From Saprospiraceae bacterium (GTDB taxonomy: Bacteria; Bacteroidota; Bacteroidia; Chitinophagales; Saprospiraceae), in contig JAHDGD010000011.1 in the NCBI GenBank assembly GCA_020627825.1, positions 6,480 through 48,771 of the forward strand: a stretch of DNA of 42,292 bases, written 5' to 3'. Numbering within the stretch: position 1 is the stretch's first letter; every line of letters begins with the position of its first letter. The notes beneath the pieces are model-generated. The model was given only the letters and a program-made list of their open reading frames with translations, ran no database searches and was not told the DNA's origin. The position numbers and the translations under genes were made by a program. Shown in pieces: positions 6,732 through 41,368 of this stretch.

Positions 6732-6757
6732 AGTTTTTTGGGGTTAAACCCCAAAAA
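6732..6757. repeat. T/A-bounded palindrome, GGGGTT-a-AACCCC core
   Basis: A perfect inverted repeat: six T, GGGGTT, one central A, AACCCC, then an A run. It lies directly beyond the rplY terminator and shares part of its T run, between rplY and the nitrilase gene. It belongs loosely to the T-GGG...CCC-A palindrome family described in the findings. On its own it could also work as a weak second terminator in either direction. Confidence 0.6.
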
Positions 6758-12721: not shown

Positions 12722-13447
12722 CTAATTGTTTCCTTTCTCGAAAGGATTATTAGCTGCCCGTTTTTTATCAACTGCAGACTCTTTTTCAACAGGTTTTTCA
12801 AAAGGCTTTTGTTTAAAGTCTCCTCTTTTCCATGCTTTTATAAATTGATTCCAAGCTAAGGGATCAAAAATTCTTTGTGGCTTAAATTGTCCACTATATC
12901 GAAAATCAGAAGCTGTTTGACTGAGGACCATTCGGCCGGCTTCGCCACCATCAGCACGCATGTTTTCTCTCAGCAATGCAATCTTATCTTCTGATAGATT
13001 TTGTTCTATTGCCTCCCGCTCTATATCACTGACATCCATCGCTAAAAATTCTATTTCAAAGTGTTTTCGACTGGGCCAAGGGAAAATAACCGTTTCAGGA
13101 AGTAAGATCGTATCTTCACTCATAATTTGTATGAATGAATATAAATTCTTTGTTAACGTATCGGGTATTTCAAATTCTACAGTTTGATAACCAATCCTAG
13201 AAAACGTCACAACTTCACCTTGCAATGCTGCAAAAGAAAAGAAGCCTTCTTGATCCGAAACAGCTCCTCTACGTGTTCCTTTTACGGCAACGTTAGTATA
13301 TGGCAACGGTATCATATCTCCTGTTTCATCTGCCGTAATAACTGCACCAGAAAATTGAATAACCTCTGCGGAATCAATTGGCATTTGGGCGAAAGCCCCA
13401 ATTGAAAATGAAATGCAAAGAATGAATATGATTAGCTTTTGCCTCAT
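12722..13447 (-). CDS. Secreted protein with carboxypeptidase-regulatory-like domain
   Basis: The product opens with a signal peptide (MRQKLIIFILCISFSIGAFAQ). The start at 13447 puts Met directly before it; the longest frame begins ten residues upstream with a charged extension and is less likely. Residues about 30-105 form a CarboxypepD_reg-like beta sandwich (IPLPYTNVAVKGTRRGAVSDQEGFFSF, then VTFSRIGYQTVEF), as found at the N-terminus of SusC/TonB-dependent receptors and other Bacteroidota envelope proteins. The rest is a charged, lysine-rich tail without a barrel. The role is unknown; an envelope or periplasmic location is inferred. It is convergent with fbp. The cleavage region codes through a near-palindrome TTGGGC-gaaa-GCCCCAA (13386-13401 region). 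Confidence 0.8.
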   Translation of the reverse strand: MRQKLIIFILCISFSIGAFAQMPIDSAEVIQFSGAVITADETGDMIPLPYTNVAVKGTRRGAVSDQEGFFSFAALQGEVVTFSRIGYQTVEFEIPDTLTKNLYSFIQIMSEDTILLPETVIFPWPSRKHFEIEFLAMDVSDIEREAIEQNLSEDKIALLRENMRADGGEAGRMVLSQTASDFRYSGQFKPQRIFDPLAWNQFIKAWKRGDFKQKPFEKPVEKESAVDKKRAANNPFEKGNN

Positions 13448-13546: not shown

Positions 13547-15943
13547 TTATCCAATAGCAATTTTAAGAACGTCCATCATATTGTCTACATAATGGAATGT
13601 AAGTCCTTTAATGAAGTCTGATTCAATTTTTTCTACATGTTTTTTATTGTCTTTACAAAGCAATATATCTGTTAATCCAGCTCGTTTTGCAGCTAGTATT
13701 TTCTCTTTAATACCTCCTACAGGAAGTACTTTACCCCTTAATGTTATTTCTCCAGTCATTGCCAATTTCTCTCGTATGGGTTTGCCGGTTAGTAGAGATG
13801 TGATAGCAGATAGCATCGTTATACCTGCACTTGGTCCATCTTTGGGAATCGCTCCTTGAGGGACATGAATATGAATGTCTTTGTTTTGAATATCTTCGAT
13901 TGTTAAACCAAGCTGTTCAACATTGCTTTTTATAAAAGATAACGCCGTTGTTGCCGATTCTTTCATCACATCTCCTAAATTCCCAGTCAAGGTTAATTTG
14001 CCTTTTCCGGTACTTCCACTTGCTTCTATAAACAGGATATCCCCACCTACTTGTGTCCACGCTAAACCTACAGCAACTCCTGGTACTTGTTGTTCTATAT
14101 ATTTTTCATTATCGAAAATAGTAGGTCCCAAAATATCTTCTATATCAGATTGTTGAATCTCTATATTATAAGGTTCTTCAAACGCTTTTCTCTTCGCAAT
14201 TCCTCGCATGATACCTGCGATTTTCCTACTCAAGTTTCGAACGCCGCTCTCTTTTGTGTAATGTTGTATGATGTATTCAAGTATATGTGGGCTAAAACGA
14301 ACATCTTCTGTTTTCAACCCATGTTCTTCAAGTTGCTTTTTTATCAGATGATTTTCTGAAATTTTTATCTTTTCTTCAACACTATAACCTTCCAATGGGA
14401 TGATCTCCATCCGATCCCTCAATGCAGGTTGAATGGTATTTAAAGAATTAGCAGTAGCTACAAACAAAACTTTACTTAGATCATACTCAAGATCCAAATA
14501 GTTATCATGAAAGCTATCATTTTGCTCTGGATCAAGAATTTCAAGTAAAGCAGATGATGGATCTCCTCTAAAATTTGAACCAATTTTATCAATTTCATCC
14601 AAAATGAAAACAGGATTGCTGGTTTCAGCTTTTTTGATTGATTTAATGATTCTACCTGGCATTGCACCTATATAAGTTTTACGATGCCCTCTTAATTCAC
14701 TTTCATCATGTAAACCTCCCAAAGAAACTCGCACAAATTTTCTGTTAAGCGCTTTGCTTATTGATTTACCCAATGAGGTTTTACCTACTCCTGGAGGTCC
14801 CACCAAACAGAGGATTGGTGCCTTCATGTTCCCTTTTAATTTGAGAACAGATAAATGTTCAAGAATACGTTTTTTTACCTCAGTTAGTCCATAATGATCT
14901 TTGTCTAAAATCTTCTGAACTTCTTTTAAATCGAAGTTGTCTTCTGAATATTCATTCCATGGTAAATCAAGTACTAGTTCAAGGTAATTTAAAAGTACTG
15001 AATATTCTGCCACTTGTGGATTAGTCCTTTTGGCTCGAGCCAATTCCTTGTGAAATGCTTTATTTATTTCTTCTGGCCAATCTTTCTCTTCCGCTCTTGC
15101 TTCTATGGCTGCAAGTTCTTCCTTATTCGGGTTTTGTCCGAGCTCTTCTTGTATTGTTTTTAGTTGTTGATTCAATAAAAAGTCACGCTGTTGTTTATTG
15201 ATATCGCCTTGAACTTTAGACTCAATTTGTGATTTAACTTCAAGTAATTGAAGCTCTTCATTTAATTTTGAAAGAATCTTTTCAGCTTTTGCATTCGGAT
15301 TTCTAAGTTCTAGAATCTTTTGTTTTTCATTAACAGATAAATTCAGATTGCTGGAAATAAAATTGAATAAGAAATCAGTATCGTTGATGTTATCCAATAC
15401 CATCGTAGCTTCTTTTGGCAGCTGTGGCGAGAGATCAATGATTTTATGAGAAATCTCTCGTATACTTGTAGATAAGGCATTCAATTCGAGATCGTTAGAA
15501 GCGTCCTCATTAATCTGAGGTGCAACTTTAGCTTCTAGGTAAGGATCGGATTGTGTAAAGGATATTGTTTCAAATCTTTCAAGACCTCTTAATATGACTG
15601 TTATCGAACCATCAGGCATTTTGATTTGTTTCAAAATTTTGGCGTAAGCCCCAACTTGAAATAACTCATCTTCACTAGGGTCTTCAATATCGCTGTCAAT
15701 TTGTGATACCACACCCAATATTTTATCGCTTGACAAGGCAGCTTTGATTGCAGCTTGTGATTTATCTCGTCCAACCGTAATGGGTACTATTACACTTGGA
15801 AAAAGTACGGTATTTCGTAATGCAACAATTGGTAGGTGCTTAGAAAGTTCTTCTGGATTTATTTTTTCGGGATTATCATCTGGAATATTAAACATCGGAA
15901 TGAAATCTCTATTTCCTGCTAATTTTATTTTTTTGTCAAACAT
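13547..15943 (-). CDS. lon: ATP-dependent Lon protease
   Basis: Lon degrades misfolded and regulatory proteins in the cytoplasm. From the proposed start (MFDKKIKLAGNR) the protein has 798 residues. It has an N-terminal LON substrate-binding domain (from LPIVALRNTVLFPSVIVPI), a coiled linker, an AAA+ module with Walker A GPPGVGKTSLGKS and Walker B PVFILDEIDK, and a C-terminal protease domain with the Ser-Lys dyad in KDGPSAG (Ser705) and GGIKEK (Lys746). The longest frame starts 33 bases earlier at 15976 with a hydrophobic MSFFLLKIRKE extension not usual for Lon, so 15943 is preferred, with AAAAGAG just before it. A separate LON-domain protein is coded at 30004. No heat-shock element was recognised. 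Confidence 0.96.
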   Translation of the reverse strand: MFDKKIKLAGNRDFIPMFNIPDDNPEKINPEELSKHLPIVALRNTVLFPSVIVPITVGRDKSQAAIKAALSSDKILGVVSQIDSDIEDPSEDELFQVGAYAKILKQIKMPDGSITVILRGLERFETISFTQSDPYLEAKVAPQINEDASNDLELNALSTSIREISHKIIDLSPQLPKEATMVLDNINDTDFLFNFISSNLNLSVNEKQKILELRNPNAKAEKILSKLNEELQLLEVKSQIESKVQGDINKQQRDFLLNQQLKTIQEELGQNPNKEELAAIEARAEEKDWPEEINKAFHKELARAKRTNPQVAEYSVLLNYLELVLDLPWNEYSEDNFDLKEVQKILDKDHYGLTEVKKRILEHLSVLKLKGNMKAPILCLVGPPGVGKTSLGKSISKALNRKFVRVSLGGLHDESELRGHRKTYIGAMPGRIIKSIKKAETSNPVFILDEIDKIGSNFRGDPSSALLEILDPEQNDSFHDNYLDLEYDLSKVLFVATANSLNTIQPALRDRMEIIPLEGYSVEEKIKISENHLIKKQLEEHGLKTEDVRFSPHILEYIIQHYTKESGVRNLSRKIAGIMRGIAKRKAFEEPYNIEIQQSDIEDILGPTIFDNEKYIEQQVPGVAVGLAWTQVGGDILFIEASGSTGKGKLTLTGNLGDVMKESATTALSFIKSNVEQLGLTIEDIQNKDIHIHVPQGAIPKDGPSAGITMLSAITSLLTGKPIREKLAMTGEITLRGKVLPVGGIKEKILAAKRAGLTDILLCKDNKKHVEKIESDFIKGLTFHYVDNMMDVLKIAIG
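15030..15043. repeat. Palindrome TTGGCTCGAGCCAA inside lon
   Basis: A perfect 14-base palindrome within the lon coding sequence (residues LARAK). Its core GGCTCGAGCC equals that of the coding copy at 35947 and the centre of the three intergenic copies. Lon seems intact here, so it may be a chance match or a site maintained by selection. Confidence 0.6.
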
Positions 15944-18103: not shown

Positions 18104-20500
18104 TCACCTTGATAAAGTGATTGTCCCGTAAAGAGTATCCGTAGATCCATCAAGATAAAGAACATTCATTACCCAAGAATAGACGCCTGCTTGCGCATTT
18201 CTGGCTTTAAATGTACCATCCCATGAAATAGAGGCAGCACCTGCTTTGAATTCAGTGGCTTCATATATTTTTTCGCCCCATCGATCGTATACTATGAGAT
18301 CTTGAATTTGTGCTACTTCTTGTGCCGCGAAAGGAAAGAAAAAATCATTGAGTCCATCATTGTTCGGAGTGAAAATATTGGGTACATAAATTCTTCTTTT
18401 GTTATCAACCCTTATTGTAACTGAAGTGGAATCAATGCATCCATCTTGGGATATTACTCGAACATAAAATGTTTCATTTGCATACGGTTTGGCGATGGGT
18501 TGCACACAATCAAAACAGGAAAGATTAATTGTTTCCGTCCATATAATCTCGTCCAGATTTCCAACTGAAAGAATGGGCATTAATTGAACACTGTCGCCAA
18601 GACAAATGGTAAGATCTTCATCGAATGCAATAGATGGAATATCTGCTGCTGTTAATGTTCCCGTGACAATTTCAATACATCCATTCGCATCTTCTACGAA
18701 CACCGTATAAAAGCCAGGAGCTAAAGTCGAATAGGTGCTTTGAGAAGAAAATAAGGTGTCATTTAATGCAAAAGTAAAAGATGGAATGCCTCCAGAGACA
18801 GATTCAATATCTATTTCTCCGGTATTTTCTCCATCACAATTAGGATCTATAAATTGTATGTTAGGATTGATCGGATCAGGTGCTACTAAAGTGAAATTTT
18901 GCTCTATTGAGCATCCATTTAAGTCGGTTATTGTTACAGAGTAGTTTTGGGCTTGTAAGCCCAAAATGGTGGGATCTGATTCTTCTGTATTCCACAAAAA
19001 AGAATATGGTGGTGTCCCAAAACTGGGAATAGCTGTTAAACTCCCATCATTACCAGCTTCTCCTAAGTGATTAAAGCACGATACATTGAATCCATTGTAA
19101 TCACTTGGCAAGAGTTCAAGCTGAAGAGCAGGTGGTTCTGTTACTTCCTGAAGTATAACTCCATCATTTCCAAACTCATCGCTTACATAGATTTGATATG
19201 TTCCAGCAGCAACATTGGATATTTCGTTGTTTATTAATAGGTCTGTCATTCCATTTCCTGCTATGGATGGATCAGCGATATTTGTATAAGTATAGGTGAA
19301 AGGCGGTGTTCCTTGATCAATAGAGAAAATGATTTGGCCACTTGGCGTTCCTGCGCATAACGCAGGACTTTCTTCACTTGATAATAGGATTTCGCATTCT
19401 ATAACAAGAAGATCGAGAAAGACTAAGCTATCACAATTCGCAGCTGTTAGAATAGTATCTAAATAATTACCTGTTTCGGAATAAGAACTTGAACCTACAT
19501 TGTAATTTTGGTCATTACAGATCCATACATCAAGGGCAGTTTGAGGTTGGTTCAAGACTTCTACATTGAGCTGTATTAAACTATCACAACCATTTTCATA
19601 AACGTAAACTTCTTCATAAAAGCCAGTTTCACAAAAGATAGTACCATTAACCTCTATGCATTCACCTTCACACAAGGTAGTGTCAATAGAGCTTGCACCT
19701 GGTGTCGAAATATTGATCAAGGTGCAACTTTGAGGTGCTTCATCACAAACATTTGACGCAATGACACACACCTCGTATGTCCCATTTTCAGGAAATGAAG
19801 TTGTAAAAATTGCATCATTACCAACTTGAATATTTCCTTCAATGTACCATGTATAATCCGAAGCGCCAAATACGGGAGTCGTTGTAAAAGTCACTTCATT
19901 ATCTGGACATGAATCTCCTGAATGCTCTATATCTCCTGAATTTTCCAATGGCAATACTTCAGTTGTGCCTTCTTCGACATTAAATGTCCAATCACAATTA
20001 GCACCATTACTGCCATCCATGATTAAATAATAATATTGTCCTACAGTGAGAGGTGTTAAGTTAGTAAACACTTGACTTGTATTCGATGGAATGTCTGTAT
20101 CGCAAATTGTTATAGGGGTAAAATTTTCACAATCTGTACTTTCAAAAAAACCTACTTCCAAACTATTTATCCCTCCTATACAGACTCCTACATCAACTCG
20201 TATGGTGAGATCAACTGAACCTGCAATAAAAGCAATATATTGCATGTTGTTGTATTGAGTGGTGCAAAATCCAGAAAATCCTTGTCCTTGAGCTGTTAAA
20301 TTATTATTACCTGTAAATCCATCAATATCACATATCACACATGCATCAGCACAAAATGATGTCATTTCTGCTTCTGGACCACAAATTTCAGGTTGACCAA
20401 TTGCCTTTGAAATATTGAAAAAAATAAATAGTAAGATCCAAAGGATGCAGCATTTGAATCTTATATTTAATCTATGTAAAGCAATTGTATTACTATTCAT
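18104..20500 (-). CDS. Secreted adhesin-like protein with gliding-motility (CHU_C) T9SS domain
   Basis: A 798-residue cell-surface protein. A signal peptide occupies about residues 1-36 (hydrophobic ILWILLFIFFNI, ending IGQ). A cysteine-rich N-terminal domain follows, then a PKD-like domain (about 200-265, WYIEG...FPENGTYEVCV), cysteine-containing repeats with CDSLIQLNV/CDSLVFLDL, and SprB-like segments (TPPFTYTY, TPPYSFLWN, IPSFTFALN with SVTITDLNGCS and TVFVEDANGC). Residues 704-798 are a CHU_C gliding-motility-associated C-terminal domain (YVPNIFTPNNDGLNDFF, IYDRWG-type VYDRWGEKIYE, GVYSWVM), a type B T9SS sorting signal. It is therefore exported through the T9SS and attached to or released from the surface. 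Ligand unknown. A 22-base palindrome of the repeat family is coded at 18945-18966. Confidence 0.9.
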   Translation of the reverse strand: MNSNTIALHRLNIRFKCCILWILLFIFFNISKAIGQPEICGPEAEMTSFCADACVICDIDGFTGNNNLTAQGQGFSGFCTTQYNNMQYIAFIAGSVDLTIRVDVGVCIGGINSLEVGFFESTDCENFTPITICDTDIPSNTSQVFTNLTPLTVGQYYYLIMDGSNGANCDWTFNVEEGTTEVLPLENSGDIEHSGDSCPDNEVTFTTTPVFGASDYTWYIEGNIQVGNDAIFTTSFPENGTYEVCVIASNVCDEAPQSCTLINISTPGASSIDTTLCEGECIEVNGTIFCETGFYEEVYVYENGCDSLIQLNVEVLNQPQTALDVWICNDQNYNVGSSSYSETGNYLDTILTAANCDSLVFLDLLVIECEILLSSEESPALCAGTPSGQIIFSIDQGTPPFTYTYTNIADPSIAGNGMTDLLINNEISNVAAGTYQIYVSDEFGNDGVILQEVTEPPALQLELLPSDYNGFNVSCFNHLGEAGNDGSLTAIPSFGTPPYSFLWNTEESDPTILGLQAQNYSVTITDLNGCSIEQNFTLVAPDPINPNIQFIDPNCDGENTGEIDIESVSGGIPSFTFALNDTLFSSQSTYSTLAPGFYTVFVEDANGCIEIVTGTLTAADIPSIAFDEDLTICLGDSVQLMPILSVGNLDEIIWTETINLSCFDCVQPIAKPYANETFYVRVISQDGCIDSTSVTIRVDNKRRIYVPNIFTPNNDGLNDFFFPFAAQEVAQIQDLIVYDRWGEKIYEATEFKAGAASISWDGTFKARNAQAGVYSWVMNVLYLDGSTDTLYGTITLSR
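18945..18966. repeat. 22-base palindrome inside the CHU_C protein gene
   Basis: Arms TTTTGGGCTT and AAGCCCAAAA, perfect over 10 bases, with a 2-base centre. It lies in a SprB-like segment and encodes LGLQAQN on the minus strand. It is one of the best coding copies of the T-GGG...CCC-A palindrome family. Confidence 0.75.
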
Positions 20501-24377: not shown

Positions 24378-26024
24378 ATGCGTTATTTTTTATCTTTTAC
24401 ATGTATTATTTTTTGGGCTTTAAGCCCAAAAACCCAAACAGTGGGAGTTACAGAGTATACAGATAATGTTCAAGAAGGGTATGTATTATTCAGCCCTGTT
24501 TCCAATGATAAAACGTTTTTAATTGATGAATGTGGACAGATCATACAAAAATGGGAAACCCTTGGTGTTCCTGGTATGATGGGGAAATTGACGAATGAAG
24601 GTGATTTATATAAAGCAAGAAGGAGCGGATCTCCTATTTTTTCAGGTGGTGGAGTAGGTGGTAAAATTGATGGGTATGATTGGGATGGAAATACATTATT
24701 TACCTATGATTTAAGAGACTCCTCGTTTCATCAACATCACGATATTGAAATACTTCCCAATGGTAATATTCTCGCTTTAGGCTGGGGATTTGTAATTAAA
24801 AGTGAAGTAGATGAAGTGGGTAGATCCGTCAGTCATCCAGGAGGAATGTACACAGAGAAAATATGGGAATTAAAACGTGTTGATGAAGTTCACTATGAGG
24901 TCGTATGGGAATGGGATGTTTTCGATCATCTAGTACAAAATGTGAATGAAGATCTGCCAAACTATGGCAATCCAGTTGATTTTCCTCAACGAATAGACAT
25001 CAACTATACCAATGCAGTATCTCCTTCGATTCAAGATTGGCTCCATTGCAATTCTTTGGATTACAATGAAGAGCTTGATCAGATTATTTTGAATTCAAGA
25101 AATTTTGGTGAGTTTTGGATTATTGATCACAGTACAACAACTGAAGAAGCTAAGACAAGCTCTGGTGGAAATGCAGGAATGGGAGGTGACATATTATATA
25201 GATGGGGAAATCCTGAAGCATATGGAGCTGGAACTCCTCAAGATCAGGTTTTTTACGGACAACATGATGCACATTGGATAAAAGAAGGTTTGCCAGGAGA
25301 AGGTAATATATTGGTTTTTAATAATGGAGCAGGTCGACCTGGAGGAAATTATAGTACCATTGAAGAAGTTGTTCCTCCTCTTGAAGGGTTTACTTATACA
25401 ATGGAAGAAGAAGCCTTTGGTCCCAGTGAATCTATCCTAATCTATGGTGCTCCAACAGGGGAACAAGCTTTCTTTTCACAACGTATTTCAGGCGCACAAC
25501 GGATGGCTAATGGAAGTACATTAATCTGTATGGGAAATCTTGGTGTTTTAGCAGAAGTGAATGAGAATAAAGAAACTGACTGGTTGTATGTTAACCCTTC
25601 AGGAACCTTTACCTCTGAACAAGGTGATCCACCTCAAACAGCTTCAAACTCTATTTTTCAAGCTGTTAAATACGATCCAAGTTTTATCGGGTTTGAAGAT
25701 AAAGATGTTACTCCAGGTGAAAAGATTGAATTGAAGCCTATTGATAATTGTACATTAGTTTACAATGAAAATTTCAACGAAGCATCATGGACGGCATATT
25801 ATGACATAGATCATAATGCGCTGCATATTCAGAATAAATCAGATAAAAAAATCGACATCAAGCTATACAATTATAATGGTTTGAACGTTGGAAATATACA
25901 GGTAAATGGGTTTGAAAATTATGTTTATAATACAAACCTATATCCGCAGTCCCTTTATGTTGCTATTCTTTTCATAGAAGGACACCCTTCACAACAATTA
26001 AAATTTACAGTGCTCAATGAATAA
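24378..26024 (+). CDS. Arylsulfotransferase-like secreted protein, first of tandem pair
   Basis: The 548-residue protein belongs to the arylsulfotransferase (ASST) beta-propeller family. It shares with the next gene, in the same order, the repeats QTVGV/L, ILPNGNILALGW, VVWEWDVFDHLVQ, DWLHCNSLDYN, WIIDHSTTTEEA and GGDILYRWGNPEAY. Histidines in FHQHHDIEILP and GQHDAHWI are candidates for the active site. Enzyme activity is inferred from family only. The C-terminal 95 residues look like a degenerate T9SS beta-sandwich (YNYNGLNVGNIQ, YVYNTNLYPQSLYVAILF). The N-terminus has a hydrophobic segment, but the expected AxA-Q cleavage site is replaced by ALSPKTQ, encoded by a palindrome. Its stop overlaps the next start by 8 bases. 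Confidence 0.83.
   Translation: MRYFLSFTCIIFWALSPKTQTVGVTEYTDNVQEGYVLFSPVSNDKTFLIDECGQIIQKWETLGVPGMMGKLTNEGDLYKARRSGSPIFSGGGVGGKIDGYDWDGNTLFTYDLRDSSFHQHHDIEILPNGNILALGWGFVIKSEVDEVGRSVSHPGGMYTEKIWELKRVDEVHYEVVWEWDVFDHLVQNVNEDLPNYGNPVDFPQRIDINYTNAVSPSIQDWLHCNSLDYNEELDQIILNSRNFGEFWIIDHSTTTEEAKTSSGGNAGMGGDILYRWGNPEAYGAGTPQDQVFYGQHDAHWIKEGLPGEGNILVFNNGAGRPGGNYSTIEEVVPPLEGFTYTMEEEAFGPSESILIYGAPTGEQAFFSQRISGAQRMANGSTLICMGNLGVLAEVNENKETDWLYVNPSGTFTSEQGDPPQTASNSIFQAVKYDPSFIGFEDKDVTPGEKIELKPIDNCTLVYNENFNEASWTAYYDIDHNALHIQNKSDKKIDIKLYNYNGLNVGNIQVNGFENYVYNTNLYPQSLYVAILFIEGHPSQQLKFTVLNE
24410..24432. repeat. 23-base palindrome in the signal-peptide region of the first ASST gene
   Basis: Arms TTTTTGGGCTT and AAGCCCAAAAA, perfect over 11 bases, one central T. 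It encodes FWALSPKT at residues 12-19. In the neighbouring paralog this place reads LATHAQDQ, a normal signal-peptidase site. Confidence 0.8.
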
Positions 26025-30767: not shown

Positions 30768-33700
30768 ATGTATTCAAAAATTATACAATCAATTATGGAA
30801 AAATTTGTAATTAATTCCAGTTCAGAAAAGGGAAGAAAATACTACGACATGATCAGAATCAAGATGTCGAGTAAAGCAGGAAAGAGCTTATGTTATGGGG
30901 TTCTTTATTTGATGTTGACGATGATGTTCACATTTATGGGAACATCAATATCTGCACAATGTATTGATCCAACTCCAGAAATTCTAGGAGATTTTTCTGT
31001 TTGTGAAGGTGAAAGTGTGACATATAATGTAGCGGATTTCGATCCTGCTCATACCTATGTTTTCGAAGTTGTTTCAGGCGGTGTTATAGAATCTCAAACA
31101 GGTGGAGAGGTAAATGTATTGTGGGACGAGGTTTCAGGTGGTCCACATATATTAAGAGTTACAGAAACGGATGATGTTTGTGTTGGTGTTGCCGAAGCTT
31201 TGGTTACCATCGAAGGCGATGCAATATTGGTTTGTAATGATAACTTGAATATCAGTTTGGCTTCAGATTGTCAGCTTGAGATTACACCTGACATTATTCT
31301 AGAAAGTCCAGAATTTCCAGACGACTCTTATGAAATTAGTATTTTAGATGAGAATGGAAATTCTATTCCCAATATGTTGAATGCGTCACATCTTGGACAA
31401 ACACTAGAAGTTTCAGTTACTCATTTATGTAGCGGAAATAAGTGTTGGGGAGATATCATCTTAGAAGATAAATTAGCGCCGCAGATTATGTGTGAAAATG
31501 ATACCTTGACATGTGATGAGTTTGCTTCGTTTGTTATGATGGAACCGACTATTACAGTTGATAATTGTGATGATGCGACTTTGGAATTTACAGTAGAAGA
31601 TATGGAACAGCCATGTTCAAGCCCTTATTCATTAATAAGAGCAATTACTTGGACGGCTACAGATGCAAGTGGGAATGTGAGTGCTCCTTGTACTCAGTTG
31701 ATTCACGTAGAAAGAGTAACATTAGCAGATCTTACATTTCCTCCGAATTATGACGGTTTGGGTACCAACCCAAATCCTTTAAGTTGTAGCGGTAATTTTG
31801 CTACCACAGATGAGGGATTCCCAGCATTAACAGTTACTGGTTCGCCAGGAGGTGATGCAGGATGTTCAACAATTGAATTTACATTTTCAGATACTTCTTT
31901 GCCTTTATGTGATGATGCTTGTGCTTATTCAAATTCAAGTTACAAAGTGATCAGAACATTTGTTGCTGTTGATTGGTGTACGGGAGATATACGAGAAGAA
32001 ACACAAGTTATTAAAGTAGAAGATATCATCAATCCTGTTGTTCAACCCATAGCAGATATTACAGCAAGTGTCAATCCTTTTGATTGTAGTGCTCAAGTTT
32101 TGTTGCCATCGGCAACAGTTTCTGATAATTGTACGGCAGAAGAATCTTTAACTATAACATATAGTACAGAGCTTGGTGAGATTATTGACGGGGTCTTGTA
32201 TTTAGAAGCTCCAGCTAAAACAATGGGTGGAGATGGTGTAGAAATTACGGTAACTGTAGAAGATTGTTGTGGAAATCAAGGGAGTACTACATTCGAAGTA
32301 TTTTTAGAAGATGAAACACCACCTGTGGTTGTGGCAGATACTTACGAAACCATCAGTTTGTTGCCTTCAGGTATAGCAACATTATATGCTACATCAATCG
32401 ATGACGGGTCTTATGATAATTGTGGCCCAGTTGAACTTTCGATCAAGCGAATGGATAATGGGGCTGGATTACCTTCAGAAGATTTGTTCCCTCCAGCAGG
32501 AAATGATAATGCTCAATTTAATGAAGTTGTTCATTTTTTCTGTGGAGATGTGGGACCTGATCATACTGTAATGGTTCAGTTAAGAGTATGTGACGATGCA
32601 AATATGGATGGTAATTTTGGTACGGCCAATGACAATTGCAACATTGCAATGGTAGAGGTAGAAGTGCAAAATAAATATGCGCCTGTGATTCAATGTCCAG
32701 CGAACATGACGATTTCATGTACAGATTTCGAAACAATTGACGTAAATGATGCAGCACAAATGAATGCTTTATTTGGTACTGCGACTGCAGTGGGACCTTG
32801 TAATCCTACTATAACAGTTACTGCTAATGCATCAAATACCCTGAATTGTGGTGTAGGGTTTATTACGAGAAACTTTACTGCAACATCTTCAGGAGGTACT
32901 GATCAGTGCACGCAGACAATTAGTGTTGTGGCATTTGATGATAACTTATTGACGTGTGATCGAATCAGTTTTGATGAGCTGAATAACAACATTTACAATT
33001 GGTGTGCAGTAAATGATGGAGTGAACGACGATGATGATGATTTACCAGCGATTAATCTTGACGGTTGTGATGGGATCAACATTGCAGAGGTAAATGTTAA
33101 TACTGCAGGTTTATGTACGACAGTTGGAATTCAAACAGATATCGATACATTTAACTATGCAGGATCATCAGCTTGTAAAAAGTATGTTGTTCACTATGAA
33201 ATTATTGATCAATGTCTTTTTGATGAGAATTATGTAGATCCAGCGACGGGTCAAATAGATCCGTATAATGCAAACAATGGATATTTCGAAATGTATCTAG
33301 AATACAATGTTGTAGATAGTGAGCCACCATTATTGGCTTGTCCTTCTATTACACTTCAAGCTAACACCTGTGATGGTTCAACTGAAAGTGTAGGAATCAT
33401 TGCTGAAGATGCTTGTACACCACAGGATGAATTGTTATTTGAATTCCGTGTAGATGTAGGAGGCGATGGCACAATCGATCTACCAGGAGGATCAAATTGG
33501 TACACTGGGAATAGTTTTACAGGATCAACAATTGGTCTTTCTGCTATACCTACAGGAAATCATGTTTTGTATTGGAGAGTAGATGATGGATGTGGAAATA
33601 CACAGACTTGTTCACAGAATATAACGGTTGTTCCTTTTGACAAAGCGCCTACTCCTTATTGTATTGGTGGTCTAAGTACTGCTGTAATGAATACTAATGG

Positions 33701-35509: not shown

Positions 35510-36151
35510 ATGAACGATATCTTTATAAAAACGCTGCTTTTAACACTGTTAATCTCTTTTTTTTCTTTCTATTCTTGTAGTTCGCATCGTTATGCAGGCG
35601 AAGATTATACGAAAAATCATTCCCTATCGAAAGCTAAGAAAAGAGACTACACTAAAAATCGTTCGATTACTGCAAAACGTCCTTCCTCTTCCACAAAGAA
35701 AAAAACATACAAGTCTACGCCTTCCGAAGTGAGTAGTGAACGAACCGCACTCATCCGCTATGCTTCCACATTACAAGGGATTCCATACGAATATGGTGGA
35801 AAAAATACACAAGGTTTTGATTGTTCTGGTTTTACTTCTTATGTCTATGAACAACAAGGTAAAAGCCTGAAGGGTAATACCAATATGCAAGTGCAACAAG
35901 GCACTAGGATTTCTTTGGGTCAAGCCCAAAAAGGTGATCTGTTATTTTTTGGCTCGAGCCAAAAGATTTCCCATGTGGCTTTAATTGTGGAGAACACTAA
36001 AGATAAATTAGTTGTCATTCATGCGACTTCAAGTAAAGGTGTCATTCAGCAAGACATCACACATTCTACTTATTGGAGACCTAAGATTTTATATGCGGTC
36101 AATGTATGGGAAAACGGAAAACAGGAATCTCATCTTGTTTCTATGAAGTAA
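35510..36151 (+). CDS. NlpC/P60 family cell-wall peptidase, lipoprotein
   Basis: The 213-residue protein has a lipoprotein signal peptide with the lipidation cysteine at 23 (FYSC), a basic low-complexity linker with a repeated unit DYTKNHS/DYTKNRS (32-52), and a C-terminal NlpC/P60 domain. The catalytic triad is visible: Cys105 in GFDCSGF, His155 in ISHVALIV and His171 in VIHATS. Family members cleave gamma-D-Glu-diaminopimelate bonds in peptidoglycan. It is anchored in the envelope and likely acts in wall remodelling. Two palindromes of the repeat family are coded in frame at residues 135-141 (LGQAQK) and 146-152 (FGSSQK), just before His155. It is convergent with prfC and shares a bidirectional terminator with it. 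Confidence 0.93.
   Translation: MNDIFIKTLLLTLLISFFSFYSCSSHRYAGEDYTKNHSLSKAKKRDYTKNRSITAKRPSSSTKKKTYKSTPSEVSSERTALIRYASTLQGIPYEYGGKNTQGFDCSGFTSYVYEQQGKSLKGNTNMQVQQGTRISLGQAQKGDLLFFGSSQKISHVALIVENTKDKLVVIHATSSKGVIQQDITHSTYWRPKILYAVNVWENGKQESHLVSMK
35914..35930. repeat. Palindrome TTTGGG-tcaag-CCCAAA in the NlpC/P60 gene
   Basis: Perfect 6-base arms around a 5-base centre; the right A run extends to 35932. It encodes LGQAQK. The core GGGTCAAGCCC also occurs in the amidohydrolase gene (minus strand of 28759-28778). Confidence 0.65.
35947..35964. repeat. 18-base perfect palindrome in the NlpC/P60 gene
   Basis: TTTTGGCTCGAGCCAAAA, perfect over all 18 bases, 16 bases after the preceding palindrome. 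It encodes FGSSQK, a few residues before the catalytic His155. Same centre as the three intergenic copies. Confidence 0.8.
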
Positions 36152-36175
36152 ACTATTTCGCATCATGCTTTTCTT

Positions 36176-36197
36176 TTTTTGGGCTCGAGCCCAAAAA
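36176..36197. terminator. Palindrome (core GGGCTCGAGCCC), likely bidirectional terminator
   Basis: Five T, GGGCTCGAGCCC, five A: a perfect 22-base palindrome. It lies in the 51-base gap between the convergent ends of the NlpC/P60 gene and prfC, so both strands read stem plus T run after a gene. It is also one of three identical copies of the repeat family (with 37852 and 39544). Confidence 0.75.
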
Positions 36198-36202
36198 TTC
36201 TC

Positions 36203-37786
36203 CTAAAAATCACTCTGGAAATGAAAGTTGATGTCGGGATGATTTTCTTGCATCATTTTAAGTCCCCAGGCAGATTCTGCTAGATAGACTAATTTACCGT
36301 CTTTATCCTTTGCAATATCTTTACGCCTTCTTTTGATAAATGCTTTCATTTCTTCTTCATTCTCACTTTCTATCCAGCAGGCTTTATATAAGTTAACGGG
36401 TTCATAAGTGCAGCTTGCACCATATTCACCCTCTAGACGATATTGTATCACTTCAAATTGAAGTGCACCTACGGTTCCTATAATTTTTCGTCCACTTTCT
36501 TCTTTGGTAAATAATTGTGCAACCCCTTCGTCCATCAATTGATCGAGCCCTTTTGCAAGTTGCTTGGCTTTCATAGGATTGGCGTTATCAACATACCTGA
36601 ATTGTTCTGGAGAGAAACTTGGTATACCTTTAAATTGTAGCTTTTCGCCCTCTGTCAATGTATCTCCTATCTTGAAATTACCAGAGTCGTAAAGGCCCAC
36701 AATATCTCCTGGAAAAGCCTCGTCTACTACACTTTTCTTACTAGCCATAAAGGCAGTGGGATTCGGAAATTTCATTTTCTTTTCATTCCGAACGTGTAAG
36801 TAATTTGTGTTACGCTGAAAAACACCTGAACATATTCTGAGGAAAGCGATCCGATCTCTGTGCTTAGGGTCCATGTTCGCATGAATCTTGAAGACAAAGC
36901 CAGTAAACTTCTTTTCTGTAGGTTCAATCATACGCTGTTCCGTTTCTCGAGGCAGTGGACTAGGTGCGATTTCTACAAAACAATCCAACATTTCTTTAAC
37001 TCCAAAATTGTTAACAGCTGAGCCAAAAAAGACAGGTGATAACTCGCCATTTTCATAAGCTTCTTGATCGAGTTCAGGGTAAACTTCTGTCAAGACTTCT
37101 ACATCTTCTCTGAGTTCATTTGCTGCTTTTTCACCTACTAATTCTTCTAGTATAGGGTCATCAAGATTTTCGATAACCGTCACTTCATCCTGTTGCTGCT
37201 TGCTATGAGGACGAAATAAATTGAGTTTCTTTTCATATAAGTTGTAAACCCCTTGGAATGTTTGCCCCATCCCTACGGGCCAACTCAAGGGTAGTACATT
37301 TAATTTTAACTTTTCCTCCACCTCGTCAAGTAAATCAAAAGCATCTTTACCTTCCCTATCCAGTTTGTTGATGAAAACAATCATGGGAGCCTTTCGCATT
37401 CGACATACTTCTACTAATTTCTCGGTTTGCATCTCTACCCCTTTTGCGACATCGATTACAACAATGGCACTATCTACAGCTGTTAATGTCCTGTAAGTAT
37501 CTTCAGCAAAGTCTTTGTGACCAGGTGTATCTAGGATATTGATTTGTTTGTCGCGATACTCAAAGGCCATCACGGAAGTTGCAACAGAAATCCCTCTTTG
37601 TTTTTCGATTTCCATGAAGTCACTGGTTGCGTGCTTCTTTATTTTATTAGATTTTACAGCACCTGCTTCTTGTATGGCTCCTCCGAAAAGCAATAATTTT
37701 TCCGTCAGGGTTGTCTTTCCCGCATCTGGGTGAGATACAATCCCAAATGTTTTTCGCTTGCCGATCTCTTCTAGTAAATTTGCCAT
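36203..37786 (-). CDS. prfC: Peptide chain release factor 3
   Basis: RF3 is the GTPase that frees RF1/RF2 from the ribosome after termination. The 527-residue length is standard. The G1 loop [10 protein letters not shown] (18-27), switch [14 protein letters not shown]3 [11 protein letters not shown] and G4 NKLDREGKD are present, followed by the RF3-specific domains II and III ([31 protein letters not shown]). The start gives [20 protein letters not shown] -7-like box TATCTTTG (complement of 37804-37811) is 18-25 bases upstream. It is bounded on both sides by identical palindromes. Confidence 0.97.
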
Positions 37787-37803
37787 ACCTTATAATTGAA
37801 GCG

Positions 37804-37830
37804 CAAAGATATGGAATAATCAAGTTTCAA
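37804..37830 (-). promoter_or_regulatory. Candidate promoter of prfC
   Basis: The minus strand reads TATCTTTG (complement of 37804-37811), an exact TAnnTTTG. A TTG lies 16 bases upstream (complement of 37828-37830), shorter than the usual 19-21, so only the -7 box is convincing. The leader would be very short. Confidence 0.45.
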
Positions 37831-37851
37831 TAATCATAGAGGAAGCCATCT

Positions 37852-37873
37852 TTTTTGGGCTCGAGCCCAAAAA
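37852..37873. repeat. Palindrome (core GGGCTCGAGCCC) between divergent prfC and MATE genes
   Basis: Five T, GGGCTCGAGCCC, five A, perfect over 22 bases and identical to 36176-36197. It stands upstream of both neighbouring genes, where a terminator has no annotated gene to serve. Confidence 0.8.
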
Positions 37874-37930
37874 TTATAAAGAACAAATAAAGGCGAGGCC
37901 AACATTTGCTCACTCACCATAGTGGTGACG

Positions 37931-38008
37931 ATGATTTATTCATAAAAGTTGTTATTTCTTCAGCATTTCAGGTCTCATTACGAAGCTCTATTACATCATT
38001 CGTGTTTA
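37931..38008. repeat. Diverged 78-bp direct repeat, copy A
   Basis: Aligns without gaps to 41291-41368, exactly 3360 bases downstream, with 61 of 78 positions identical by my hand count. The best block is AAAAGTTGTTATTTCT followed by GGTCTCAT and ACGAAG. Most differences in the core are C/T or A/G exchanges. Confidence 0.75.
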
Positions 38009-38010
38009 AT

Positions 38011-38061
38011 CCTTATACCATTTAAATTTTTGATGTTTTTCAGAATTTGAATGGTATTAGG
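38011..38061. other. Long imperfect hairpin upstream of the MATE gene
   Basis: Left arm ATACCATTTAAATTT (38015-38029), right arm GAATTTGAATGGTAT (38043-38057), 13 of 15 positions paired, 13-base loop; pairing extends outward by CCT/AGG after one mismatch. No T run follows on either side. Confidence 0.5.
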
Positions 38062-38204
38062 TCCTGACAACGTGTTGATTGTATAAATACGCCAATAATT
38101 TAAATGTTATTCATTCCTTAAACCGAAAACATTTTAGAAGCTTATACATTACATAGTCCTAGCTTTATCCCAAGGTCAAAAAACTATTTCCTATCGCACA
38201 ATCA

Positions 38205-39539
38205 ATAGATAAAAAAGCGGAATTCGGCACCAAACCGCTAGGTCAACTTCTTGCTCAGCAGGCTGTTCCAGCAGCTATTGGCATTATGGTGCTTTCCATT
38301 TACGCCATTATCGATACCATTTTCGTAGGTAAGTACGTGGGCCCCGATGGGATTGCAGCCATCACTGTTATTTTGCCGATTACATTTCTCATGGGCTCTA
38401 TAGGAATGGCAACTGGGGTGGGAGGGGCTTCGATCATTTCAAGAGCTTTCGGGGAAAAGAATGATGAAAAAGCGTTTAAAACATTTGGGAATATGATGGC
38501 AATGGTCATTGTATTGACCCTTTCTTTGACTGTTTTATCTTTTATTTTTTCAGAAGAAATAGCATCTTTATTTGGTGGAAAAGGGACTGTTTTAGCTCCA
38601 GCAAATGAATATTTTCGAATTGTATTACCTGGTATTCCGTTCCTAGCCTGGGCGATGATGGCAAATAATGTGATCCGTGCTGAGGGATATCCTAGAATGG
38701 CGATGTTCACCTTGATCACTCCAGCGGTTGTTAATCTTATTCTAGATCCCATCTTTATTATTTATTACGGTTGGGGTATGTTTGGAGCAGGACTAGCAAC
38801 TACGATAGGGTATTTGTTTAGTGCAGGATTTACTTTTTGGTATTTCATGGGTAAACGCTCGGAGATGCGTCTTGATTTGAAATCTATTGTATTGGATTGG
38901 GCAATCGTAAAAGAAATTTCAGCAATTGGTTCGGTTACACTCGCTAGACAGTCAACGATCAGTTTATTATCGGTGGTTTTGAACAATTCTTTATTTGTGT
39001 ATGGTGGAGAAATAGCCATTGCTATGTATGGTTTAGTGAACCGAATCATGTTGTTTCTAAATTTTCCCACCATTGGAATTACCCAAGGATTTGTTCCTAT
39101 TGCCGGCTATAATTATGGTGCTAAGTTGAAAAAACGTGTAACGGACCTTATTCGAATTGCCATGCAATCTGCGACTATTCTAGCAGCGATTTTATTTTTA
39201 TTGATCTTTATTTTCACACCTGAAATATGTTCGTTGTTTACAGACGATCAGGAATTAATTGATCGAGCGACACCAGCAGTTCGCATTTCATTACTTGCAA
39301 CTCCATTGATTGCGATTAATCTTATTGGCAGCGCTTATTTTCAGGCAACAGGTAAAGCCATGGCAGCACTTTTATTGGCCTTGTCAAAGCAGGGGATTTT
39401 CCTTATTCCATTGATTTTGATTTTACCTTTATTTTATGGTTTGAATGGAATTTGGTACTCCTTTCCTATTGCTGATATAGCTGCGGCAGTGCTCACCTTT
39501 TTCTATTTATGGTACAAAAGAAAGCAAGAAACAGTGTAG
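38205..39539 (+). CDS. MATE family multidrug/cation efflux transporter, non-canonical start
   Basis: MATE proteins export drugs or organic cations in exchange for Na+ or H+ through 12 membrane helices. Typical motifs are IIDTIFVGKYVGPDGIAAI, MATGVGGASIISRAFGE (helix 2), RAEGYPRMAM, NLILDPIFI, and GITQGFVPIAGYNYGA in the second half. The first ATG (38286) would begin inside helix 1 and give 417 residues. The frame is open upstream and encodes DKKAEFGTKPLGQLLAQQAVPAAIGI, which is the normal N-terminus of the family. No ATG, GTG or TTG precedes it before the stop at 38160; the codon at the place of the usual initiator Met is ATA (38205), which I used as start (444 residues). Either a rare ATA start, a sequencing error, or a decayed start. 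Confidence 0.85.
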   Translation: MDKKAEFGTKPLGQLLAQQAVPAAIGIMVLSIYAIIDTIFVGKYVGPDGIAAITVILPITFLMGSIGMATGVGGASIISRAFGEKNDEKAFKTFGNMMAMVIVLTLSLTVLSFIFSEEIASLFGGKGTVLAPANEYFRIVLPGIPFLAWAMMANNVIRAEGYPRMAMFTLITPAVVNLILDPIFIIYYGWGMFGAGLATTIGYLFSAGFTFWYFMGKRSEMRLDLKSIVLDWAIVKEISAIGSVTLARQSTISLLSVVLNNSLFVYGGEIAIAMYGLVNRIMLFLNFPTIGITQGFVPIAGYNYGAKLKKRVTDLIRIAMQSATILAAILFLLIFIFTPEICSLFTDDQELIDRATPAVRISLLATPLIAINLIGSAYFQATGKAMAALLLALSKQGIFLIPLILILPLFYGLNGIWYSFPIADIAAAVLTFFYLWYKRKQETV

Positions 39540-39541
39540 GA

Positions 39542-39567
39542 TTTTTTTTGGGCTCGAGCCCAAAAAA
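39542..39567 (+). terminator. Palindrome (core GGGCTCGAGCCC), likely terminator of the MATE gene
   Basis: Eight T, GGGCTCGAGCCC, six A; perfect over 24 bases (39544-39567). It starts 3 bases after the MATE stop. Third identical core copy. On the plus strand the bases after the stem are A-rich, so classical T-run termination works better on the minus strand; the role here is less clear than at 36176. Confidence 0.65.
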
Positions 39568-41290: not shown

Positions 41291-41368
41291 ATGATTCATT
41301 GACAAAAGTTGTTATTTCTGCGGTATTTTAGGTCTCATCACGAAGTCCTACTGCATAGTGCTGGTTTA
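41291..41368. repeat. Diverged 78-bp direct repeat, copy B
   Basis: Partner of 37931-38008, same orientation, 61 of 78 identical by hand count. Its last bases include the stop codon of the isomerase-like gene (41366-41368). Confidence 0.75.

What the first reader, a model, noticed from the sequence alone, without database searches (positions are those of the whole stretch)
36176..39567. Three identical GC-rich palindromes flank prfC and the MATE gene at about 1.7-kb intervals
A perfect palindrome with core GGGCTCGAGCCC, bounded by at least five T and five A, occurs at 36176, 37852 and 39544 (spacing 1676 and 1692 bases). In AT-rich DNA one 12-base word with ten G/C is not expected even once in 42 kb, so three copies in 3.4 kb are not chance. 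Each sits in a successive intergenic gap, so two adjacent genes are each bracketed by identical sequences. Candidates are an iterated palindrome (compare cyanobacterial HIP1 or enterobacterial REP), an uptake-type sequence used as inverted terminator (compare Haemophilus or Neisseria), or a chromosome-architecture site.
Basis: partly seen in the sequence, partly recalled or inferred. Interest (0 to 1): 0.75.

Follow-up and report, generated by a model that had tools for sequence, protein, structure and literature searches.

The report
Genome-wide repeated hairpin DNA word
The three identical palindromes belong to a short DNA word repeated hundreds of times across this bacterium's chromosome, inside genes as well as between them, and it looks more like a label read on the DNA itself than like an ordinary gene-end signal.

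Summary
In detail: three exact TTTTT-GGGCTCGAGCCC-AAAAA copies, spacing 1676 and 1693. The bracketing of prfC is probably incidental: the genome has 129 exact copies, reversed control 0. They are not intrinsic terminators: the T-run precedes and the A-run follows the hairpin on both strands, and copies also lie in divergent gaps and in genes. The palindrome belongs to a larger family, GG[C/T]-loop-GCC[C/A]AAA. The form GGC-TTNC-GCC-[C/A]AAA has 335 copies here; in the family (Saprospiraceae, inferred) it is patchy, 0-590 copies, with 20 or more in 23 of 120 genomes, and 0-5 in 118 others of the class. In genes it lies in all six frames and forces rare codons (17 of 37; 0.34 expected). Six site pairs are shared between congeners, two with the loop exchanged; coding orthologs lacking it align without net gap in 18 of 19 cases. 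I read it as a DNA-level recognition word with unknown reader, most like DNA-uptake sequences with dialects, although no convincing type IV pilus ATPase was found. My limited paper searches found no description of it.

The parts
36174..36197 (.). palindrome copy 1: T7-GGGCTCGAGCCC-A5, convergent gap NlpC/P60 > < prfC
37851..37873 (.). palindrome copy 2: T6-GGGCTCGAGCCC-A5, divergent gap prfC < > MATE
39542..39567 (.). palindrome copy 3: T8-GGGCTCGAGCCC-A6, convergent gap MATE > < FMN reductase
35951..35964 (+). GGC-TCGA-GCC-AAAA inside the NlpC/P60 gene; the aligned G200 ortholog lacks it
15028..15041 (-). GGC-TCGA-GCC-AAAA inside an ORF; G200 ortholog lacks it, no net gap
15637..15650 (-). 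GGC-TTAC-GCC-AAAA, TTNC form inside an ORF; G200 ortholog lacks it, no net gap
13384..13397 (-). GGC-TTTC-GCC-CAAA, TTNC form inside an ORF; G200 ortholog lacks it
6737..6755 (.). hairpin TTTGGG-GTTAAAC-CCCAAA, intergenic by my ORF calls, variable-centre form
24412..24430 (.). hairpin TTTGGG-CTTTAAG-CCCAAA (TTTAA loop form), within an ORF call
18946..18965 (.). hairpin TTTGGG-CTTGTAAG-CCCAAA, within an ORF call
31757..31774 (.). hairpin TTTGGG-TACCAA-CCCAAA (T-A instead of C-G at the stem top), within an ORF; may be chance
35914..35930 (+). TTTGGG-TCAAG-CCCAAA, the GGT-CAA-GCC form, within NlpC/P60 (GQAQ codons)
35510..36151 (+). NlpC/P60 peptidase gene (context)
   Evidence: PF00877
36203..37786 (-). 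prfC, release factor 3 (context)
   Evidence: PF16658 and PF00009
38286..39539 (+). MATE transporter (context); the true start may lie upstream (my guess, not tested)
   Evidence: PF01554

Best explanation
The palindrome is the local form of a hairpin-capable word iterated in many Saprospiraceae genomes, GG[C/T]-(mostly 4-5 nt loop)-GCC[C/A]AAA, selected or driven at the DNA level. SHOWN: it is over-represented far beyond composition; it lies in ORFs in every frame and on both strands, and between genes; it overrides codon choice; some sites are kept at orthologous positions, two of them with TCGA exchanged for TTNC; coding sites nearly always differ from motif-free orthologs without change of length. 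INFERRED: a cell-encoded reader recognises the word in DNA, and the most familiar biological reason for such a pattern is self-DNA recognition in natural transformation (DNA-uptake-sequence-like), where preferential uptake makes the word accumulate and dialects shift together. In this species many intergenic sites are perfect palindromes that show the word GGCTCGAGCCCAAA on both strands at once; that these replaced TTNC sites is suggested by two site pairs only. The reader protein and the uptake step are not shown.
For: 129 exact palindromes, reversed control 0. GGCTTNCGCC[CA]AAA: 335 copies here, 120 in G200; the GGCTTTCGCCCAAA form in all three congeners. Loops in use: TCGA, TTNC, TTTAA/TTAAA, TGGG. 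Patchy in the family, 0 to 590, 0-5 in 118 other genomes of the class. DNA-level pressure: motif codons for A[FYSC]A[QKN] in 17 of 37 (0.34 expected), L[STPA]P[KN] 6 of 18 (0.04), G[FL]R[PQ] 3 of 6 (0.02), FGLEPK 5 of 5 (0.00), while the Ala-Gln dicodon is near expectation (59 against 42.6); all six frames. Same position, other loop: G000 TCGA = G198 TTCC (L035:7447) and G000 TCGA = G199 TTAC (L038:4264). Word kept with at most 1 difference in 8 of 30 alignments (4 distinct site pairs counted both ways) against 55 of 2760 flanking 14-mers. In G155 no strand polarity and Poisson-like spacing, from the 98 sites on its first two contigs out of 758 strand hits. ComEC in 35 of 35 genomes. One orientation commoner in reading frames, 72 against 38, as reported for uptake sequences (abstract of PMC2346458).
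Against: No convincing type IV pilus or T2SS ATPase: all 35 genomes give PF00437 matches at E <= 0.001, but weak and partial; 4 of 35 pass the cut-off, this genome does not. ComEC is equally present in the 20 genomes without the word. The copy number is at the low end of the 'hundreds to thousands' given for uptake sequences (abstract of PMC2346458). Pairing ability of variable centres is favoured, which a linear tag does not need. TCGA copies prefer gene ends (convergent gaps 14-fold, divergent 4.5-fold). No excess at both gene termini (20 of 100 in the terminal 20%), but one towards the first half of ORFs. Near matches exceed expectation: for the TTNC word one-off 9 against 1.0 and two-off 139 against 12.7 here (the two-off class includes the TCGA palindromes), two-off 82 against 23.7 in G200, so the word is less than absolutely sharp. 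26 of 38 alignments lack the word in the relative.
Confidence: 0.38

Rival explanations
1. Binding site of a chromosome-organising or regulatory protein (working like Noc, MatP or SlmA sites, recalled): a dimer binds the GGC...GCC inverted repeat, with A-tract flanks, at many dispersed loci.
For: Inverted-repeat core; 18-bp palindrome T3-GGGCTCGAGCCC-A3 with A/T runs usual beyond it; few near matches of the 12-mer (50 exact, 1 with one mismatch); stem top co-varies, intergenic 23 of 27 Watson-Crick against 15.1 shuffled; TCGA form mainly intergenic.
Against: Loop length varies, mostly 4 or 5, unusual for a rigid dimer; copy number ranges from 0 to 590 among related genera; the TTNC form is nearly as common in ORFs as expected by length (37 of 46, 0.9-fold).
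Confidence: 0.25
2. HIP1-like iterated word, maintained by a methylation- or repair-linked mutational mechanism rather than by a reader.
For: Iterated GC-rich palindrome in coding and intergenic DNA, differing from motif-free orthologs without gaps, with one form standing in for another as with 'alternate HIPs' (abstract of PMC4390886).
Against: About 29 (TCGA) and 75 (TTNC) copies per Mb here, against the 1000-2000 per Mb in a passage of PMC4390886; the commonest form is not a palindrome and carries a one-sided AAA. Methyltransferases were not surveyed.
Confidence: 0.15
3. RNA hairpin acting in transcripts (3'-end protection, processing, or factor-dependent termination).
For: Folds at -12.2 kcal/mol, z -2.5 (one copy); TCGA copies are enriched in convergent gaps, and 17 of 35 distances to an adjoining stop are under 40 nt; non-Watson-Crick stem tops in ORFs read as G-U more often than A-C in the mRNA, 12 against 4 of 25.
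Against: Both orientations in ORFs (72 sense, 38 antisense); two thirds of the transcripts carry TTNC, not the GNRA-type complement; divergent gaps also used; no U-tract; no Rfam match in the window. Of the 12 G-U cases 9 are one word whose sense copies mostly encode GQAQ.
Confidence: 0.15
4. Small mobile palindrome (REP/RAYT-like or other selfish insertion).
For: Nearly identical copies, abundant in one species only.
Against: No Y1 (RAYT-type) transposase match in this genome or in G155, the richest; coding orthologs without the word have no net gap in 18 of 19 cases; loops differ at orthologous sites. Two intergenic comparisons do show 5-nt gaps.
Confidence: 0.05

Closest known systems
DNA uptake sequences (DUS/USS) of Neisseriaceae and Pasteurellaceae
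   Same: Short word in both orientations, coding and intergenic, one orientation commoner in reading frames (abstract PMC2346458), family-limited with dialects (abstract PMC3630211)
   Different: Hairpin-capable core with variable loop; perfect palindrome form; copy number at the low end; no convincing type IV pilus ATPase; in Bacteroidota; uptake untested
HIP1 and alternate HIPs of cyanobacteria
   Same: Iterated GC-rich palindrome that can be replaced by another form (abstract PMC4390886)
   Different: Much rarer, longer, commonest form asymmetric; methyltransferase link untested
REP elements with RAYT transposases (definition recalled)
   Same: Short intergenic palindromes
   Different: Also in genes, no Y1 transposase match in this genome, almost no insertion signature in genes
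Dispersed binding sites such as Noc (NBS), matS, SlmA sites (recalled, from no call)
   Same: Palindromic site in tens to hundreds of copies
   Different: Variable loop length; large copy-number swings among relatives
Intrinsic terminators
   Same: GC hairpin next to A/T runs, often near gene ends
   Different: T-run upstream and A-run downstream on both strands

Membership tests
DUS/USS | Strong genome-wide over-representation in both orientations, in genes and between them | tested here: met
DUS/USS | Dialects among related species | tested here: met
   Loop variants by species in sampled stretches and at two orthologous sites
DUS/USS | Bias towards gene termini (Pasteurellaceae, abstract PMC2346458) | tested here: not met
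   20 of 100 sites in the terminal 20% of complete ORFs; excess in the first half instead
DUS/USS | Type IV pilus/T2SS-type uptake machine | tested here: not met
   PF00437 below cut-off in this genome, above it in 4 of 35, weak partial matches only
DUS/USS | ComEC channel | tested here: met
   35 of 35 genomes, 15 rich in the word and 20 without it, so not discriminating
DUS/USS | DNA with the word is taken up preferentially | not testable with these tools
   Needs a transformation assay
HIP | Palindromic core | tested here: inconclusive
   Met by the TCGA form, not by the commoner TTNC form
HIP | About 1000-2000 copies per Mb (passage of PMC4390886) | tested here: not met
   129 and 335 in 4.46 Mb
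HIP | Cognate DNA methyltransferase | not tested
   No methyltransferase survey was run
REP/RAYT | RAYT (Y1) transposase in the genome | tested here: not met
   0 matches in G000, G200, G155 and G017; present in 11 of 15 word-rich and 12 of 20 word-free genomes
REP/RAYT | Extragenic only | tested here: not met
   14 of 50 TCGA and 37 of 46 TTNC sites in ORFs
Intrinsic terminator | U-tract directly after the hairpin | tested here: not met
   none of the three copies was picked up by the terminator scan
Intrinsic terminator | Only after genes | tested here: not met
   6 of 50 in divergent gaps, 14 of 50 in ORFs
Polar guide sites (Chi, KOPS; recalled) | Strand polarity along the replichore | tested here: not met
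   G155: 383/375 strand hits; on its first two contigs (98 sites) orientation alternates at or above random, runs 30 against 26.8 and 31 against 22.9
Chromosome-architecture sites | Distribution tied to ori/ter | not testable with these tools
   Draft of 297 contigs

The most novel reading that the evidence does not exclude
A previously undescribed genome-tagging system of Saprospiraceae: a hairpin-capable DNA word, with species dialects, read by an unknown pilus-independent receptor that lets cells favour DNA of their own kind; in this species the tag was rebuilt between genes as a perfect palindrome readable from both strands.
Probability: 0.27. Interest if true: 0.85.

Novelty: new variant of a known kind. 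Interest (0 to 1): 0.66.

Why it matters
Iterated words that override codon choice are uncommon (my general knowledge), and the known ones point to machinery for DNA uptake, methylation or chromosome handling. In Bacteroidota, Riemerella columbina competes best with its own DNA, but that paper leaves the responsible motif open (PMC7965970, section 16 read).

Tried and rejected
Intrinsic terminator: polarity, placement and co-occurrence with canonical terminators do not support it. Mobile insertion and REP/RAYT: almost no gaps in coding orthologs, no Y1 transposase match here. Phage origin: 0 matches in viral contigs for the 18-mer. Rfam: nothing in the window at gathering scores. Protein-level or codon-pair explanation: not compatible with codon expectations and six frames. 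Co-variation of the A/T arms beyond the core: not seen overall; T- and A-run lengths are nearly independent (r 0.21) and the perfect extension is no longer than shuffled (p 0.14), though two of 14 single positions have p 0.03-0.04. Regular spacing: not seen, Poisson-like in G155 (98 sites) and G200 (27 gaps). At first I took the near-copy at 35951 for chance protein sequence; it fits GGC-TCGA-GCC-AAAA exactly and is now listed.

Limits: genes are greedy ORF calls, not a curated annotation. The 558-kb sample of the own genome was chosen on contigs known to hold palindromes (only L056-L058 were not), so densities in it are biased. G198 and G199 are 51% and 61% complete. The elements aligned include rarer loops (TTCAA, TCCA, TGGA) that may be chance. 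Reciprocal alignments count twice. Machinery searches used 15 of the 23 word-rich family genomes and 20 without the word. Paper searches: searches found no paper holding all terms; searches matched 67 and 296 papers of which 20 and 10 were listed; the nine papers holding the 12-mer look unrelated by title and abstract start, and none held the four TTNC words searched. The library lacks most subscription journals.
Full report
OBSERVATION. The three palindromes are real: cores at 36181, 37857 and 39550, spacing 1676 and 1693, each in an intergenic gap around prfC and a MATE gene. Two-mismatch matches in the window number 6 against 0.25 in shuffles. The genome has 129 exact copies, none of the reversed word, and 176 places within two mismatches of TTTGGGCTCGAGCCCAAA. 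Of 197 other genomes of the order, 5 have one copy and the rest none; that sample held no congener. Viral contigs hold none of the 18-mer. Three copies in 3.4 kb is about what a random scatter would produce once or less in the genome (my arithmetic, 0.6), so prfC and MATE need not be specially marked.

ANATOMY. The unit is T3-GGGCTCGAGCCC-A3 with A/T runs usually extended; flanks otherwise look unrelated. A 558-kb sample of the own genome holds 50 exact cores, 1 with one mismatch and 15 with two, against 0, 0 and 12 for the reversed core. Run lengths on the two sides are nearly independent and the palindrome is not extended beyond chance overall, so the symmetric part is the fixed core. As RNA one copy folds at -12.2 kcal/mol, but the T-run comes first and the A-run last on either strand, the reverse of an intrinsic terminator. 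Placement of the 50: 17 tandem, 9 convergent, 6 divergent, 14 in ORFs, 4 at edges; by length, convergent gaps are enriched 14-fold, tandem 8-fold, divergent 4.5-fold, ORFs 0.3-fold. Genes followed by a palindrome have a canonical terminator as often as others (2 of 23 against 40 of 372).

A LARGER FAMILY. Masking the palindrome uncovers GGCTTNCGCC[CA]AAA and hairpins with other loops: TTTAA/TTAAA, TGGG, TTAA. GGC-loop-GCC[CA]AAA (loop 3-8) gives 218 strand hits in the sample, palindromes counting twice, against 1 for the control CGG-loop-CCG[CA]AAA. TTTGGGCN(3-8)GCCCAAA occurs 288 times in the genome and 0-6 times in 197 others of the order. The arms TTTGGG...CCCAAA occur 129 times in 2.1 Mb of four genomes, against 0-6 for nine rearranged arms. 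With the 50 CTCGAG centres set aside, the outer centre pair is Watson-Crick in 50 of 79 sites (shuffled mean 32.7, maximum 46): intergenic 23 of 27 (15.1), ORFs 27 of 52 (19.2, p 0.018); by distinct centres 23 of 44 (14.1, p 0.002) and, intergenic, 11 of 15 (6.8, p 0.0075). So the ability to pair is itself favoured, most clearly between genes, with C-G, T-A and G-C exchanged. A further form, GGTCAAGCC[CA]AA, occurs 26 times; 17 of its 19 sense copies encode GQAQ, 6 are antisense, 1 intergenic.

SPREAD. GGCTTTCGCCCAAA is present in all three congeners (99, 50 and 42 copies against 150 here). With N and C/A allowed there are 335 copies here, 120 in G200 and 590 in G155; 23 of the 120 family genomes sampled have 20 or more, many have 0-2; reversed controls give 0-5. 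Copy number can differ within a genus (G202 56, G290 7). Elsewhere in the class 118 genomes have 0-5. G155 also uses TGNC loops (758 strand hits for any 4-nt loop, 383/375 by strand); the 98 listed sites on its first two contigs show Poisson-like spacing and no strand polarity.

DNA-LEVEL PRESSURE. In ORFs of the four genomes' stretches 110 TTNC sites lie in all six frames, 72 sense and 38 antisense; the commonest frame (51) reads A-x-A-Q/K, and sites lean towards the first half of ORFs (KS p 0.001). In the own genome the motif codons are used for 17 of 37 A[FYSC]A[QKN] peptides (0.34 expected), 6 of 18 L[STPA]P[KN] (0.04), 3 of 6 G[FL]R[PQ] (0.02) and 5 of 5 FGLEPK (0.00); the Ala-Gln dicodon alone is near expectation, 59 against 42.6; the three congeners agree for the TTNC frames. 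The cause therefore acts on nucleotides, not on the protein.

EVOLUTION. Of 38 alignments with both flanks at least 55% identical, 12 have the motif in both genomes (six site pairs, each counted twice) and 26 do not; in ORFs, 18 of 19 without it show no net gap. At two of the six pairs the loop is TCGA here but TTCC in G198 or TTAC in G199; in a weaker alignment (59.7%) G200 has the hairpin GGGGTTCAACCCC at the second of these. The word is kept with at most one difference in 8 of 30 alignments (four distinct pairs) against 55 of 2760 flanking 14-mers. Near matches of the TTNC word are few but above expectation: one-off 9 against 1.0 here, 23 against 2.0 in G200, 7 against 0.3 in G198, 4 against 0 in G199; two-off 139 against 12.7 here (a class that includes the TCGA palindromes), 82 against 23.7 in G200, 20 against 3.3 in G198, 22 against 11.7 in G199. 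One intergenic G199 site faces 5-nt gaps in both relatives examined.

MACHINERY. Tested in 15 word-rich and 20 word-free family genomes. ComEC: 35 of 35. Y1 (RAYT-type) transposase: absent from G000, G200, G155 and G017, present in 11 of 15 rich and 12 of 20 word-free genomes. T2SSE/PilB-type ATPase: weak partial matches in all 35, over the cut-off in 4, not in this genome.

INTERPRETATION. Insertion elements, terminators and protein-level causes are disfavoured. What remains is a word recognised in DNA (or less likely RNA). The pattern - well-defined word, both orientations, coding and intergenic, dialects, patchy family range - most resembles DNA uptake sequences. Against that stand the missing pilus ATPases, the modest copy number, the favoured pairing and the lack of a bias to gene termini. 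I put the uptake-like reading at 0.38, a chromosome or regulatory binding site at 0.25, a HIP-like methylation or repair mechanism at 0.15, an RNA role at 0.15 and a mobile element at 0.05. It works like a DUS in several respects, but I do not file it as one, because tested features were not met and preferential uptake cannot be tested here.

LITERATURE. Seen: abstracts of PMC2346458 and PMC3630211 (outlines), section 16 and passages of PMC7965970, passages including the abstract of PMC4390886. Searches combining uptake sequences, palindromes or the words themselves with Bacteroidetes, Bacteroidota or Saprospira terms listed no paper describing this word; two searches showed only part of their matches.

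CHANGES ON RE-CHECKING. Density against DUS/USS was softened, near-match excess, gene-terminus test, partial samples and capped lists were added; the odds did not need to change.

Noticed in passing
window 37885-38016, partial copy at 41291-41356: A separate repeat of about 130 nt between palindrome copy 2 and the MATE gene: eight hits beyond itself in the 558-kb own-genome sample (seven intergenic, one in an ORF call; 70-88% identity) and three partial hits in G198.
   Followed up: partly
GGTCAAGCC[CA]AA, e.g. window 35918: A GGT-CAA-GCC word, 26 copies in four genomes' stretches; 4 of 5, 2 of 3, 9 of 11 and 2 of 4 GQAQ peptides (G000, G198, G200, G199) use exactly these codons against 0.08-0.32 expected.
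   Followed up: partly
G155 (unnamed family member): Richest genome seen: 590 TTNC copies and 758 strand hits for any 4-nt loop in 4.1 Mb, with an extra TGNC loop dialect.
   Followed up: partly
G198 stretches L059-L078: Other repeated words, such as CCCGAAATATGC (11) and ACAGAATTGGTA (9) in 142 kb, not analysed.
   Followed up: no
window 25104-25273 and 26761-26930: A direct repeat of 170 nt at 70% identity, spacing 1657.
   Followed up: no
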